From positions 1 to 34,614 of the forward strand of contig JACPZB010000020.1 in the NCBI GenBank assembly GCA_016195725.1: DNA of 34,614 bases, read 5' to 3'. Below are positions 28,624 to 34,550 of this stretch, in pieces (within the stretch, counting starts at the first letter, position 1; each line of letters starts with the position of its first letter). The notes beneath the pieces were generated by a model. It ran no database searches. It was not told the origin of the DNA and saw only the letters and a program-made list of their open reading frames with translations. Source of the DNA: Deltaproteobacteria bacterium (GTDB lineage: Bacteria; Desulfobacterota; GWC2-55-46; UBA9637). The position numbers were made by a program, and so were the translations under genes.

Positions 28624-30411
28624 TTAGCCTCTTTTTTTAGAGAGATAAGATTCTGTTAAAACCTTAAAGCTTTCCATATCACCCGCCTTCTCTGCGTCTG
28701 TAAATTTTTTCAAAAGAAGGGAGGTTTCCTTTTTAAGCCTGCTTTCCATAATCACCTTTTTACAGCAATCCTCCAATATCTTTTTGGGTTCTTCTTTTAT
28801 TGAAACATCATCGTGAATAGAATTTTTGACCAGCCATGTCTTTGCCTTCTCGTCATGAGCTGCATCAATAAGGGAAGATAATTCTATCTTGCCGCTTCCT
28901 TTTTGTAAGACGTCTATAATCAGTCTGCCAGCCTCTTTTAAAAAATCTGTGTTAAATATCTCTACAGTCCTGCTGATGGAGTCATTGTATAAAGAAGGAT
29001 ATGCAAGCAAAACCTTTAATATTTTTTCTTCTGTTTTGCTAAAATCTACTTTATTTAATATTTCATTTGCAGTAGGAATATGGTGGCGCTGTTGGTCTTT
29101 AAGTCCTTCTGCCTCTTTACTATAGAGGGGGATTTTAGCTGCCCTTACTGTTGATAAAACTATATCCGGTCCGATATGAAGAACATTGGCAATCTTTTCA
29201 ATATAGATATCTCTTTCTACTATATTCTTGATATTTGCAATATAAGGCGCAGCCTCTTCTAAGAAGGCGACCTTGTCATGGAGAGTTTCTATATTTAATT
29301 TTGCCTTAAGGGAATTCAGAAAGAAATCCATAAGTGGTTTGGCTTTCTGGATATAATGGGCCATCTTAGGGGCGCCCTCTTTTTGGAGAAGGTCATCTGG
29401 GTCTAACCCTGCGGGTATGAGAACAACCTTGCCGTGAATATCCTCTTCAAGAAACAGGGGAAGGCTCTTTATAGCCGCTGCCTTGCCTGCTTCGTCTGAA
29501 TCAAAAAGGGTGTAAATTTCTTTTGTATATCCTTTGAGCTTTCTCAGATGATTTATTGTGAGAGCGGTACCCAGTGTAGCAACAGTGTTTACAAATCCGT
29601 ATTGGTGCAGCATCAGAAGGTCGAAATATCCCTCTACCACCAGCACAAAGCCTTCTTTGGATGCAACGTTCTTGGCCTGATACATACCGTAAGCAACATC
29701 GCCCTTTTTAAAGAGAGGCGATGTGGGGGAGTTTAGATATTTAGGTTCTTCGCTCCCAAGAGACCTTCCGCCAAAACCAATAACCCTTGCTCTAGTGTCC
29801 ATTATAGGAAACATGATCCTATTTCTGAATCTGTCATAAGAATCTTTGTCCTTTGTGCTTACAAGACCAACCTTTTCAGCTAACTCCAGCGATATTCCTT
29901 TATTTCTCAGAAATTTTGCAAGACCGTCCCGCCCTGCCGGCGCATAGCCTATTTTAAAATCTTTTATAATCTCGGGTTTTAATCCACGCTTTTTAAGATA
30001 CATCTGCGCATTTTCTGCAGCAGGCGATGTGAGGAGGTTTTGGTGATAAAAATCCATAGCCACATGATTGGCTAAGAACATAATCTCCCGCTGATTTTCT
30101 TCGTTTGAAGGTTTTGTGTCCAGAGGCATATCTATGCCCAGTCTTTTAGCAATGCTTCTTACGGCCTCTGGAAATGAAAGATTTTCCTGCTTCATCAGGA
30201 ATGTAAATGCATTTCCGCCTGTGCCGCAGCCAAAGCAGTAGAATATCTGCTTCTCGTCATTTACGGTAAAGGACGGTGTCTTTTCTGAATGGAATGGACA
30301 AAGCCCAATGTGATTCCTTCCGCTCTTCTTGAGAGGAAGATATTCTGAGACTATCTGAACAATGTCGGCTCGTTCTCGTATTTCATCTATCTTTTCCTGA
30401 GGGATCATCAT
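28624..30411 (-). CDS. dnaG: DNA primase
   Basis: Synthesises RNA primers at the replication fork with DnaB helicase. The 595-residue product has the N-terminal zinc finger (CPFH at about 39-42, CFGCG near 60), the RNA polymerase core with VVEGYFDLLML and the TOPRIM acidic residues (TLFDSDEAGKAA), and a C-terminal helicase-binding region (about 440-595). It starts at one of two adjacent ATGs (30411 or 30408); no clear Shine-Dalgarno. rpoD, which follows dnaG in many bacteria, is absent; a convergent diguanylate cyclase lies there instead. Confidence 0.95.
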   Translation of the reverse strand: MMIPQEKIDEIRERADIVQIVSEYLPLKKSGRNHIGLCPFHSEKTPSFTVNDEKQIFYCFGCGTGGNAFTFLMKQENLSFPEAVRSIAKRLGIDMPLDTKPSNEENQREIMFLANHVAMDFYHQNLLTSPAAENAQMYLKKRGLKPEIIKDFKIGYAPAGRDGLAKFLRNKGISLELAEKVGLVSTKDKDSYDRFRNRIMFPIMDTRARVIGFGGRSLGSEEPKYLNSPTSPLFKKGDVAYGMYQAKNVASKEGFVLVVEGYFDLLMLHQYGFVNTVATLGTALTINHLRKLKGYTKEIYTLFDSDEAGKAAAIKSLPLFLEEDIHGKVVLIPAGLDPDDLLQKEGAPKMAHYIQKAKPLMDFFLNSLKAKLNIETLHDKVAFLEEAAPYIANIKNIVERDIYIEKIANVLHIGPDIVLSTVRAAKIPLYSKEAEGLKDQQRHHIPTANEILNKVDFSKTEEKILKVLLAYPSLYNDSISRTVEIFNTDFLKEAGRLIIDVLQKGSGKIELSSLIDAAHDEKAKTWLVKNSIHDDVSIKEEPKKILEDCCKKVIMESRLKKETSLLLKKFTDAEKAGDMESFKVLTESYLSKKRG

Positions 30412-31092
30412 AATAAATGCAGGTTATGGGTTATAGGTTTTTCTAATCAGCTATCGCCCAATGCCCTCGCCTGTCTTTTTACAATTCTGACAGGTAAGAT
30501 TTTTCGGGTTATTGATGGCAAATCTGGGCTGCTCTCCAGCGCTGCTTCCCACACATCCAATAAGAGCATCCGCTGTTCATTTGCTTAAATTTTATTGAGA
30601 AATTAACATGAAGACAATAAACAAGTCAAGGAGATGTATATGGTTGATATATCTGATCCATAATTTGATGTCCAATAATATGCATTAAATATACAACTTC
30701 GGCAGCAAGGTATCCTGCATGTTCCATCTGGGCAGGGTACTTCAAAAAAGGCTGAAAAACGCTACCCTAATGTAACTTTGTCTTATAACACAAAAGCAAT
30801 TTTATAACAACTGACAAACGGACAGTTGCTAAGGGGGCAATTATTTACTAAGCTGGTCAAAATTTATCCAGGAGAGGTTTGGTTACGCCAAAACAAACAG
30901 CGAAGGGCAAGGCAAAAATCCCCTTGCTTAGCGGAAAAAAGGAGGTGATGAACTATAAGATAAAGATGCGTATCGTGAAAGGAGGTGATGAACCATAAGA
31001 TAAAGATGCGTATCTATGTGAAGAGAAAGGTTTTTATGGTTAGTAGATAATACTAATTAAAACAAGTTTCTAACTAAAAAAGGAGGCATTCA
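30412..31092. other. Gene-poor stretch upstream of dnaG
   Basis: No full gene is supported. On the minus strand, 30451 to about 30573 stays open for 41 codons with protein-like composition and a Cys pair (FAINNPKNLTCQNCKKTGEG), perhaps the 3' remnant of a lost gene; it has no start with a ribosome-binding site. 30600-30900 is AT-rich with stops in all frames. 30938-31014 holds a tandem direct repeat described separately. The promoter of dnaG must lie at the left end of this stretch, but I could not pick one out. Confidence 0.5.
30938..31014 (+). repeat. Tandem 37-bp repeat containing perfect anti-SD complements
   Basis: Two copies of a 37-base unit (30938-30974 and 30978-31014, period 40, one mismatch) each begin AAAGGAGGTGATGAAC, whose first 12 bases match the complement of the 16S rRNA 3' tail. 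Each copy opens a mini-ORF at the ATG inside GGTGATG: 16 codons (30948-30998) and 20 codons (30988-31050), starting MNYKIKMRI and MNHKIKMRI. The SD-to-ATG distance is only two bases, so translation from these ATGs is uncertain. A third Shine-Dalgarno, AAAGGAGG, precedes the gene at 31093. Confidence 0.85.
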
Positions 31093-31806
31093 ATGGAAGC
31101 AAATTTTAAATTGTCAATCTTATCTAATCCATCTTTTGCGGAGTTTAATAAGTTCGTTGGGGTTTATAAATTTGGCGATCCAGTCGCTCTTTTGTTTTCT
31201 GCAGCAGAAAGCTTTGTCAATTGCGAGATTTTACATCGTAAAGCGGAAAGGGCAAAAATACTGGATTTGCCGCAAGGATCCGGCGAGTATTATGAAAGGC
31301 TTTCTACACTTCATAACACCCAAGGATTACGCAGGCTAAAAAGAGCCAGCATTGCGGTAAAGAAGGCGATAGAGATGTATCCCAATGTCTTAAAAAAAGA
31401 GGATGAACTGGTATCGGGTGAGGAAATGAAAGAAATCCTCAAGGACTATGACATAATGATCAAAAATGAAATATTTGAAATGGATTTGACATCTGAGGAG
31501 GCCAAGGAAATTTGGGGAGAATATGTTAAAGCGAGGAAAATGACAGATGAAAAGGGGATGAGTGGAACAATAACTTACCTTGGCTTAAAACTCGAAGAAT
31601 TAATAAGGGCGAGAACTGACCTTAAGAAGGGAAGAGAACATGCTAGTCCTTTGCCGTGGTGGAAGATCGTTATTGTCGCAGTTGCACTGGTAGTCTCTAT
31701 TGGTGCGGTTGTTTATTGTTATAAGAAGTCAGATTGTAAGTGGGTGTGGGAGATGGTTAAAGCTATCGGAGGAGCAGTGTTTCAAATAGTTAAAAGTGGG
31801 TGCTGA
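31093..31806 (+). CDS. Unknown protein with C-terminal membrane anchor
   Basis: 237 residues from ATG 31093 behind AAAAAAGGAGG. Residues 1-185 are mostly helical and charged. A single membrane segment at about 192-212 (WWKIVIVAVALVVSIGAVVY) is followed by a short Cys-containing tail (CYKKSDCKWVWEMVKAI, ending GC). This suggests a large cytoplasmic domain with a C-terminal anchor and a disulfide-capable tail outside. I recognise no family. It stands alone on the plus strand between the minus-strand dnaG and glyS, behind a duplicated Shine-Dalgarno region. Codon use is ordinary for the window. Confidence 0.75.
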   Translation: MEANFKLSILSNPSFAEFNKFVGVYKFGDPVALLFSAAESFVNCEILHRKAERAKILDLPQGSGEYYERLSTLHNTQGLRRLKRASIAVKKAIEMYPNVLKKEDELVSGEEMKEILKDYDIMIKNEIFEMDLTSEEAKEIWGEYVKARKMTDEKGMSGTITYLGLKLEELIRARTDLKKGREHASPLPWWKIVIVAVALVVSIGAVVYCYKKSDCKWVWEMVKAIGGAVFQIVKSGC

Positions 31807-31900
31807 ATATTTTCTTCTATAATTGCCAAACAAAACAGTCGCCTAAGACACGGCTTTGCGCTGCTCCCGGATTTTATTAGATTTTTAAGCGGTAGTTGTT

Positions 31901-31981
31901 CCATGCCGCCCTGTGAATTTCGATTGCATTAGGTGGGCGGCATGGAGCAAAATCTGGGGTATCGCTCTGTCTCAGATTTTG
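31901..31981. repeat. Two hairpins between the unknown membrane protein and glyS
   Basis: CCATGCCGCCC (31901-31911) pairs with GGGCGGCATGG (31935-31945), an 11-bp perfect stem. CAAAATCTG (31948-31956) pairs with CAGATTTTG (31973-31981), a 9-bp stem. They lie between two converging genes and may end one or both transcripts, although U-tracts are poor. Confidence 0.7.
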
Positions 31982-31990
31982 ATATTAACT

Positions 31991-31998
31991 CCTCCTTT
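31991..31998 (-). promoter_or_regulatory. Orphan Shine-Dalgarno after glyS
   Basis: On the minus strand, just after the glyS stop, AAAGGAGG is followed seven bases later by ATC rather than ATG, and the frame closes at once inside the hairpin at 31973-31981. It looks like the start region of a gene that once followed glyS and has been cut off at its first codon. Confidence 0.45.
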
Positions 31999-32000
31999 CT

Positions 32001-34172
32001 CTATCCCGCCACTCTTGACATATCTGCAATCTGATAGTAAAGGTTTCTAATCATGTTCAGCAATACCAAACGGTTGCGCCGGATTTTTTCGTCATCCACC
32101 ATGACCATGACCTTGTCAAAGAAGGTGTCTATCGTGCCTTTGAGCGATGCCAATGTTTCAAAAAGTTTTTCGTAGTTTCCCTCTTTTCCGTATTGTTCAA
32201 TTTCCGGCGCTATCCTCTCCGCTGTTTCAAAAAGCGCTTTTTCATTCACATCTTCAAAAAGAGCGGCATCCGGTCTTTCATTTTTGAGATCACCGCCCTT
32301 CAATATGTTTGAAACTCTTTTGAACGCAACAACCAGCGCGTTGCACGCAGGATTTTTCTTGAATTCCTCCAGCGCCTTCACCCTTTTTACCGCATCGTTT
32401 ATGTCATGCCACGGCGCTGACAGCACGGCGTCCACGGTATCAAAGAAATAGCCTTGAGGCATAAGTTGATTCCGCAATCTCTCTTTGAAAAACTCAAGCA
32501 CATCTTTTTTAACATCAGCAGGCGTTCTCGTAAGTTTGGTATTAAGAAGTGAGATTGATTTGTCAATAATCTTATCTATGCCCACGGGAAAGCCCTTTTC
32601 AATTATTATGGCAATTATGCCAAGCGCCTGCCTTCTCAGCGCATACGGGTCTGCCGCGCCCGTTGGATTTTGTCCTACAGCAAAGCAGCCACAGATCGTA
32701 TCCATTTTATCCGCAATGCTGATAACTGCGCCTGGAATGCCTGAAGGGAGCTTACCGCCTGCTTGGGTTGGAAGATAATGCTCATAGATTGCCCTTGCAA
32801 CATCCGTGCATTCTCCTGAAATCAGCGCATATTCCATGCCCATGACGCCCTGCAATTTGGGAAATTCTCCGACCATGCCGGATGTAAGATCTGCCTTGCA
32901 GAGCATGGCAGCGCGGCCAACCACCATCTTATTAAATAATTTCGGGCCAATGCTGAATGAGTCAAACGCCTTTGGGTTATAGTCTTCCCCTAAAAATTCT
33001 TCTACCTTTTCTTCCGGCCTGAATGGTTCGCATTGGTCTAACATTGCTCCAATAAAAACAGCAAGTTCTGTAAATCTTTCCACCTTTTCATACGATGTGC
33101 CGAGCTTTGCCTGAAAAACAACCCCTCTTAATTGGTCTACCCTTTCGGTAAGCGGGATTTTTATATCTTTGTCAAAATAAAATTTTGCATCAGAGAGCCG
33201 CGCCTTCAGCACCCGTTCGTTTCCCTTAATAACAACCTTGGGGTCTTTTGTCTTTGTATTTGCAATGGTAATAAAATAAGGAAGCAGATTGCCGTTTTTG
33301 TCAACAACGGAAAAATATCTCTGATGCTCCCGCATGGCGTTTACAACCACATCTTTGGGAAGGGATAAAAATTCCTTATCAAAACCGCCGCAAAGCGGCA
33401 CAGGATATTCCACGAGATTGGCAACCTCATCCAGCAGACCATTGTCCTGCAAGACAATTCCTTTGACCGCCTTTGCCTCTTTTTCAATGCCTTTTTGTAT
33501 CAGCTTTTTCCGCTCTTCCGGGTCTGCAATCACATATGCGGCCTTTGTCTTTTTCAGGTAGTCTTTAAATCCGGTTATTTTAAACGGCTGCGGTTTCATA
33601 AACCTGTGACCGCAGGAAGCTGCGCCGGACTTGATATTTCCAACCTTAAACCGAATTATATCTTTGCCGAACAGGGCAACAATCCAGTGGATAGGCCGCG
33701 CAAAATATATATCACCACTTCCCCAACGCATGGTTTTTGGGAAAAATTCGCTGCTCGCTATCAGTTTTGGCAGGACATCTTGCAGTATGTCTTTTGTTTT
33801 CTTTCCTTTAACTACTTTTCTTACAGAGATGTATTCACCCTTTGGAGTTTGAATAATTTTTAAGTCTTTAATCTTTACTCCCTGGCTTTTTGCAAAACCT
33901 TCGGCTGCCTTTGTCGGTTTCCCATGCTCATCAAAGGCCGCGCGCTTTGCCGGGCCTGTTGCCTCAACAACCGTGTCAGCCTGCTTTTCAGCCATGCCTT
34001 TTATAAAGATGACGAGCCTCCTCGGTGTTCCAAGGGCGCTGACATCTTTAAAGCCGAGGCGGTTATCCTCCAATGCCTTTTTCAAAAGCCCTTGCATTGA
34101 TTCAAGGGCCTTTGGAATAAATCCGGCCGGCATCTCTTCTGTCCCTATTTCCAAAAATAGATCTTTAGGCAT
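32001..34172 (-). CDS. glyS: Glycyl-tRNA synthetase beta subunit
   Basis: Beta chain of the alpha2beta2 glycyl-tRNA synthetase, needed with GlyQ to charge tRNA-Gly. 723 residues from ATG 34172, chosen because AGAGGAGAAT lies directly before it and MPKDLFLEIGTEEMPAGFIP is the family N terminus. The frame extends ten codons upstream only by entering the end of a MITE. Family motifs include RFPKTMRWGSG-like FFPKTMRWG, an EYPVPLCGGFD segment, QGVMGMEYALISGE and the C-terminal anticodon-binding part ending MSRVAG. glyQ is not directly upstream as it usually is. Confidence 0.95.
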   Translation of the reverse strand: MPKDLFLEIGTEEMPAGFIPKALESMQGLLKKALEDNRLGFKDVSALGTPRRLVIFIKGMAEKQADTVVEATGPAKRAAFDEHGKPTKAAEGFAKSQGVKIKDLKIIQTPKGEYISVRKVVKGKKTKDILQDVLPKLIASSEFFPKTMRWGSGDIYFARPIHWIVALFGKDIIRFKVGNIKSGAASCGHRFMKPQPFKITGFKDYLKKTKAAYVIADPEERKKLIQKGIEKEAKAVKGIVLQDNGLLDEVANLVEYPVPLCGGFDKEFLSLPKDVVVNAMREHQRYFSVVDKNGNLLPYFITIANTKTKDPKVVIKGNERVLKARLSDAKFYFDKDIKIPLTERVDQLRGVVFQAKLGTSYEKVERFTELAVFIGAMLDQCEPFRPEEKVEEFLGEDYNPKAFDSFSIGPKLFNKMVVGRAAMLCKADLTSGMVGEFPKLQGVMGMEYALISGECTDVARAIYEHYLPTQAGGKLPSGIPGAVISIADKMDTICGCFAVGQNPTGAADPYALRRQALGIIAIIIEKGFPVGIDKIIDKSISLLNTKLTRTPADVKKDVLEFFKERLRNQLMPQGYFFDTVDAVLSAPWHDINDAVKRVKALEEFKKNPACNALVVAFKRVSNILKGGDLKNERPDAALFEDVNEKALFETAERIAPEIEQYGKEGNYEKLFETLASLKGTIDTFFDKVMVMVDDEKIRRNRLVLLNMIRNLYYQIADMSRVAG

Positions 34173-34188
34173 ATTCTCCTCTTTAAAA

Positions 34189-34550
34189 TGTAGTCTGCCC
34201 ATTTACCCCGTTTAGAGATAAAAGGTTCTTTCGTAATTTAGTTGAAAAGCAGCCTAAAAGCGGCATGTGAATTTTTCAGCCAAAACACATTTGTACATTG
34301 CCGATAGAACGGCAGCGCAAAATAAAATCAGTAAAAAATCAGACCCCACTGCACTCGCCTTAACAAAGGCTATGGAAATCTGCCTGCACAGGCAAAATAC
34401 GAAGGTGCTGGGGTCTCAATGATGCACGGAAGAACCTTGTTTTGGCTGAAAAATTCACATGCCGCTTTCCAACAGAGTTTTTTAAATAAAATCACCTTTT
34501 TTACGAAAGAACCGAGATAAATCTCTAACAGGGTAAATGGGCAGACTACA
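34189..34550. mobile_element. MITE with long terminal inverted repeats upstream of glyS
   Basis: 362 bases with perfectly inverted 20-bp ends (TGTAGTCTGCCCATTTACCC at 34189-34208 and its complement at 34531-34550). The inverted repeat continues imperfectly for about 110 bases per side, including GGTTCTTTCGTAA / TTACGAAAGAACC and AGCGGCATGTGAATTTTTCA with its complement. The centre has another hairpin with arms AGACCCCA / TGGGGTCT. No transposase is encoded. No convincing target duplication is seen. It ends 16 bases before the glyS start codon. Confidence 0.85.

What the first reader, a model, noticed from the sequence alone, without database searches (positions are those of the whole stretch)
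30938..31092. Duplicated perfect Shine-Dalgarno units before an unknown membrane protein
Two 37-bp tandem units each carry AAAGGAGGTGATG, an extended match to the 16S tail, and open mini-ORFs starting MNYKIKMRI and MNHKIKMRI. A third strong Shine-Dalgarno precedes the gene. Possible meanings are ribosome standby sites, decoy or leader peptides, or very recent duplication under selection for high translation.
Basis: partly seen in the sequence, partly recalled or inferred. Interest (0 to 1): 0.55.

Follow-up and report, generated by a model that had tools for sequence, protein, structure and literature searches.

The report
Twin ribosome-docking sites in mRNA leader
Two near-identical, unusually strong ribosome-binding sequences sit in the leader of an orphan bacterial gene, too close to their own ATG to start translation well; similar stand-alone sites recur ahead of other genes in related bacteria and may protect the messages from decay.

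Summary
Two 37-nt units (30938-30974, 30978-31014; 36/37 identical, period 40) each carry AAAGGAGGTGAT, a perfect 12-nt match to the 16S tail; they are the two strongest anti-SD matches in the window. A third, ordinary SD starts ORF237 (31093-31806), an orphan gene in a 1.59-kb insert between glyS and dnaG, which abut in six relatives. The units are poor initiation sites: the ATG lies 2 nt after GGAGG (commonest spacing here 8). They belong to a wider pattern: of 115 AAAGGAGGTGA sites in 10 related genomes, 25 lie 52-284 nt upstream of a gene that has its own SD, with no excess of start codons behind them. Ahead of a cytochrome-cd1 gene, AAGGAGGTGA is present 90-190 nt upstream in 6 of 6 close orthologues, although most spacers are no more alike than shuffled sequence; 4 of the 6 were found without using the motif. 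Best reading: non-initiating 30S-docking sites that shield mRNA 5' regions, working like the STAB-SD of Bacillus cry3A (an RNase J gene is present). Leader peptides are disfavoured. Function is inferred, not shown.

The parts
30938..30974 (+). unit 1: stand-alone extended SD (AAAGGAGGTGAT at 30938-30949) and tail
30978..31014 (+). unit 2: second copy, 36/37 identical (SD at 30978-30989)
30960..31019 (+). predicted hairpin: arms 30960-30974 and 31005-31019, made by pairing copy 1 with copy 2; the SD of unit 2 lies in the loop
   Evidence: -18.8 kcal/mol, z -4.1; GATGCGTATC pairs with itself
31075..31092 (+). ordinary SD of ORF237, GGAGG 6 nt before ATG
31093..31806 (+). ORF237, orphan protein, hydrophobic C-terminal stretch
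30412..32000 (.). lineage-specific insert between dnaG (28624-30411, -) and glyS (32001-34202, -)

Best explanation
The two units are non-initiating ribosome-binding sites in the 5' leader of ORF237. A 30S subunit (or idle ribosome) docks on AAAGGAGGUGAU by full pairing with the 16S tail but initiates poorly, because the only start codon nearby is 2 nt away and partly inside the pairing. The docked particle shields the leader from 5'-to-3' decay by RNase J (or 5'-end-dependent cleavage), keeping the downstream SD and the ORF237 message alive: the way the STAB-SD of Bacillus cry3A works. Doubling the unit, 40 nt apart, adds a second docking site and makes a hairpin that presents the second SD in its loop. 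Shown: sequence, pairing strength, poor initiation geometry, recurrence in related leaders, motif conservation ahead of a cd1 gene, an RNase J gene. Inferred: transcription, 30S binding, protection, benefit of doubling.
For: Strongest anti-SD matches in the window. Of 115 AAAGGAGGTGA sites in 10 genomes (reversed-pattern control 9), 66 sit at ordinary spacing before an ORF of 40 aa or more, 10 before ORFs of 15-39 aa, and 25 (both window units included) lie 52-284 nt upstream of a gene with its own SD. No excess of start codons behind the 25 (7 observed, 10.1 expected). Ahead of the cd1 gene, AAGGAGGTGA lies 90-190 nt upstream in 6 of 6 close orthologues; 4 of these (G002, G004, G006, G007) were found by protein alone; spacer identity is within 0.03 of shuffled in 12 of 15 pairs and clearly above it only in three pairs among G004, G005, G006. 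One stand-alone site lies just 5' of a cobalamin riboswitch, so in a leader RNA. RNase J gene present, 649 bits. Reviews state that a strong SD without a start codon can stabilise Bacillus mRNAs (passages in PMC4113751; PMC3997798).
Against: No transcript, 5'-end or ribosome data. No promoter excess upstream of the 25 sites (mean score 7.08, shuffled 7.01), so closeness to an mRNA 5' end is unproven; no promoter-like site was found on the + strand between 30400 and the units. ORF237 and its leader have no orthologue, so conservation cannot be tested for these two units themselves. Three more distant cd1 orthologues (G008, G009, G010) lack the upstream site. The documented cases I read of are in Bacillus.
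Confidence: 0.5

Rival explanations
1. Standby or local-concentration sites: 30S docks at the units and is handed on to the ORF237 start, raising initiation rather than mRNA life.
For: Strong docking sites upstream of a gene with its own SD; the hairpin shows the second SD in a loop.
Against: Distances of 107 and 147 nt here, and 52-284 nt over the 25 sites, are long for hand-over; the ORF237 SD is not strongly closed by structure (mean unpaired 0.56).
Confidence: 0.2
2. Leader peptides or upstream ORFs: the units start MNYKIKMRI... and MNHKIKMRI..., whose translation controls ORF237.
For: Open mini-ORFs of 16 and 20 aa; two orthologous stand-alone sites (L043, L058) do have an ATG at 8 nt with 7- and 4-aa ORFs.
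Against: ATG only 2 nt after GGAGG; no start-codon excess behind the 25 stand-alone sites; the single difference between units changes the peptide (Tyr/His).
Confidence: 0.1
3. No present function: an SD left behind by gene turnover in a young insert, then doubled by slippage.
For: Orphan gene in a lineage-specific insert; no orthologous leader to show constraint; near-identity of the copies fits a recent duplication.
Against: Recurrence of stand-alone sites far above the reversed control (25 sites, against 9 reversed-pattern hits of any kind) and the 6 of 6 conservation before the cd1 gene show that such sites are kept elsewhere.
Confidence: 0.2

Closest known systems
STAB-SD of Bacillus thuringiensis cry3A mRNA (Agaisse and Lereclus 1996; known here through passages of PMC4113751 and PMC3997798)
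   Same: SD-like sequence far upstream of the start (cry3A transcript end at -129; here 107 and 147 nt), able to pair with the 16S 3' end, not the site that starts the gene, in a cell with an RNase J gene
   Different: Here doubled, with 12-nt pairing, with an ATG 2 nt behind, in an unnamed bacterium; no mRNA end or stability data
Mini-ORF ribosome-binding site that protects a T3SS mRNA from RNase E (Lodato et al. 2012; only its title seen, in the reference list of PMC3997798)
   Same: Ribosome binding in a leader protects mRNA
   Different: There, by its title, the site belongs to a mini-ORF; here initiation geometry is poor
Ribosome standby sites (recalled, no call)
   Same: Ribosome docking upstream of the true start
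   Different: Usually unstructured stretches near a structured start region; here strong SDs more than 100 nt away

Membership tests
STAB-SD | SD-like sequence complementary to the 16S 3' end | tested here: met
   12 contiguous pairs, -18.9 kcal/mol; tail read in G002 and G003
[quoted passage not shown]
   ATG at 2 nt, against 8 as commonest of 66 initiating sites; no start excess behind 25 stand-alone sites; no experiment
[quoted passage not shown]
   No promoter excess upstream of the 25 sites; single good candidates only
STAB-SD | Stabilises mRNA by blocking a 5'-3' exonuclease | not testable with these tools
   RNase J gene present; activity needs an experiment
Leader peptide / attenuation ORF | Start codon at initiating distance from the SD | tested here: not met
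   ATG 2 nt after GGAGG in both units (sequence)
Ribosome standby site | Serves a start region closed by structure | tested here: inconclusive
   ORF237 SD mean unpaired probability 0.56
Known structured RNA family (Rfam) | Match above gathering score in the leader | tested here: not met
   none in 30400-32000 (best near the units CRISPR-DR57, 22.6 bits against 39)

The most novel reading that the evidence does not exclude
A lineage other than Bacillus uses stand-alone, full-length Shine-Dalgarno sequences as a general 5' mRNA-protection device, conserved as a bare 10-nt motif in otherwise randomised leaders (for example before a cd1 cytochrome gene), and here the device has been doubled to make a two-ribosome dock with a hairpin-displayed second site.
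Probability: 0.4. Interest if true: 0.65.

Novelty: new variant of a known kind. Interest (0 to 1): 0.45.

Why it matters
If stand-alone SDs protect mRNA here, a mechanism known mainly from Bacillus would be at work in a distant lineage with RNase J. It would change how leaders and start sites are annotated in such genomes and would give a simple sequence rule for finding long-lived messages. The natural one-copy and two-copy leaders are a ready test of dose.

Tried and rejected
Leader peptides: weakened by spacing and by the lack of a start-codon excess.

HicB-like gene relic: the third 13-mer lies before a 70-aa ORF upstream of a hicA gene (the 70-aa ORF itself has no Pfam match, so 'hicB-like' is recalled), but the window mini-ORFs match nothing in Pfam.

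Mobile element: no second copy of 30590-31120 in its own genome and none in 58 relatives; repeats inside the insert are short, with no convincing terminal inverted repeats.

CRISPR repeat: weak Rfam match below threshold.

Homologues of ORF237: none in 146 relatives, genome contigs, viral contigs, phages, plasmids, Pfam or NCBIfam (nothing above a cut-off); best PHROG E 0.036. Single-sequence structure model mean pLDDT 43.5, too poor for a fold search.

Promoter excess next to the 25 sites: none.

The exact unit elsewhere: AAAGGAGGTGATGAACYATAAG gave 1 hit in genome contigs (Scalindua rubra, 174 nt upstream of a flagellin gene with its own SD) and 0 in viral contigs; with up to 2 mismatches it was in 2 of 63 genomes of the class, own included; AAAAGGAGGTGATGAAYNWTAAG was in 2 of 395 genomes of the phylum draw, own included. 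So the unit as a whole is rare; the wider pattern concerns the shorter AAGGAGGTGA core.

Full report
What is there. The window holds two direct repeats, 30938-30974 and 30978-31014, 36 of 37 bases identical with a period of 40. Each starts AAAGGAGGTGATG. In the 2.07-Mb genome this 13-mer occurs three times and its reversal never. Against GAUCACCUCCUUU both units give 12 contiguous pairs and -18.9 kcal/mol, the two strongest sites in the window on both strands; the next is -17.0, and ORF237's own SD scores -11.8. The 16S of this genome matches only to model position 1335, near a contig end, but the tail was read in two relatives (L126, L140). ORF237 follows at 31093 with its own SD, GGAGG 6 nt before ATG.

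Surroundings. ORF237 has no relative in any collection searched: 0 of 146 other related genomes, genome contigs, viral contigs, phages, plasmids. Of eight relatives' regions fetched, six show glyS and dnaG next to each other with 5-13 nt between the aligned ends (L018-L023; in L023 dnaG is cut by the contig end); the two more distant regions (L024, L025) gave no dnaG match. In the window the gap is 1589 nt. So leader and gene are a lineage-specific insert, with ORF237 on the strand opposite to its neighbours.

Can the units start translation? The ATG in each lies 2 nt after GGAGG. Among 66 AAAGGAGGTGA sites that precede an ORF of 40 aa or more, the commonest spacing is 8 nt (32 of 66). The units are therefore strong docking sites with poor start geometry. 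The resulting peptides (16 and 20 aa) match nothing in Pfam (the first was padded with X).

Is this a wider pattern? I examined every AAAGGAGGTGA reported in 10 genomes (own plus nine relatives): 115 sites, against 9 for the reversed pattern (sequences also; classification). By my rules 66 are ordinary SDs of ORFs of 40 aa or more, 10 precede ORFs of 15-39 aa, 25 lie 52-284 nt upstream of a gene with its own SD, 6 are at contig ends, 4 have no called gene, 2 are inside coding sequence and 2 are the 16S tail. One of the 25 (L114) may be an N-terminal extension. The 25 include both window units and another close pair (L052, 49 nt apart). Behind the 25 there is no excess of start codons at 4-12 nt: 7 observed, 10.1 expected from the same leaders. 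By a crude rule 20 of 23 distinct downstream genes, and 49 of 66 ordinary ones, have a hydrophobic N-terminal stretch, so the stand-alone sites are not special in this. Families seen among the downstream genes include cytochrome cd1, cytochrome c, multicopper oxidase, hemerythrin, beta-helix and Band 7.

Conservation test. The cd1-type gene of this genome (L041) has a stand-alone site 190 nt upstream. A protein search of 13 genomes found matches in 11; six are close orthologues (78-100% identity; G000, G002, G004, G005, G006, G007), and all six have AAGGAGGTGA 190, 90, 103, 91, 103 and 117 nt upstream in addition to their own SD. G000 and G005 had been found through the motif; the other four had not. 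The spacers between the two SDs are mostly at shuffled-level identity (12 of 15 pairs within 0.03 of shuffled, e.g. G000-G002 0.35 against 0.34); only pairs among G004, G005 and G006 are clearly above it (0.66, 0.69, 0.96). Against this, three more distant orthologues (G008, G009, G010) lack the site, and G001 and G003 have no cd1 match. In G003 a multicopper oxidase gene with a similar N-terminus has the site 105 nt upstream.

Structure and position. The units' near-palindrome GATGCGTATC lets copy 1 pair with copy 2, giving a hairpin with the second SD in the loop (-18.8 kcal/mol, z -4.1). Leader spacers of the 25 sites are more structured than 66 control stretches (mean z -2.14 against -0.88, p 0.01), but lengths differ and some leaders overlap, so this is a hint only. 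Promoter-like sequences are not enriched upstream of the 25 sites. One site lies directly 5' of a cobalamin riboswitch (L086, 80.7 bits), which places that one in a leader RNA. A distant case: in Scalindua rubra the exact 22-mer lies 174 nt upstream of a flagellin gene with its own SD.

Mechanism. [quoted passage not shown] This genome has an RNase J gene (649 bits; Pfam RNase J domains). The simplest mechanism is the same kind of protection. Binding, protection and the effect of doubling are inferred.

Known or new. Searches of the paper library for STAB-SD (31 papers, 20 listed; further term searches) listed mainly Bacillus work, with a few papers on other bacteria. I saw in these listings no paper about stand-alone SDs as protective sites in a lineage like this one; the library lacks most subscription journals, and the organism here is unnamed. 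I call it a new variant of a known kind. It may work like a STAB-SD; membership stays open because two defining features (5'-end position, mRNA stabilisation) could not be established.

Noticed in passing
window 30412-32000: About 1.59 kb inserted between glyS and dnaG, which abut in six relatives; no second copy of 30590-31120 in the genome.
   Followed up: partly
window 31896-31950: 16-nt inverted repeat (94% complementary, 23-nt gap) downstream of ORF237, possibly a terminator or palindromic repeat.
   Followed up: no
L127 (G003): A multicopper oxidase gene whose N-terminus resembles that of the cd1 cytochrome of relatives and which has the same kind of leader; G003 gave no cd1 match. Possible enzyme swap behind a kept leader and signal peptide.
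   Followed up: partly
L086:1457-1654: AAAGGAGGTGATGAA sits about 10 nt 5' of a cobalamin riboswitch.
   Followed up: partly
L060, L133, L136, L137 (G001) and L147 (G002): Five loci share a GGGGCAGACC...GGTCTGCCCC-type hairpin, then a stretch ending TCACAG or CCACAG, then AAAGGAGGTGA; four lie at contig ends, so probably a repeated gene family.
   Followed up: no
L048 (G006): Two tandem genes for 30-aa proteins, 188 nt apart, each with the extended SD at ordinary spacing.
   Followed up: no
L001:1518-1912 (G000): Small ORF with the third copy of the 13-mer as its SD, followed by a hicA toxin gene.
   Followed up: partly
window 30451-30552, minus strand: Short frame with a CxxC pattern (TCQNCKKTGEG) upstream of dnaG, perhaps a zinc-ribbon gene remnant.
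   Followed up: no
spacers of the stand-alone sites, e.g. L041, L043, L058, L065, L147: Many leaders carry unrelated perfect palindromes (REP-like) between the stand-alone SD and the gene's own SD.
   Followed up: partly
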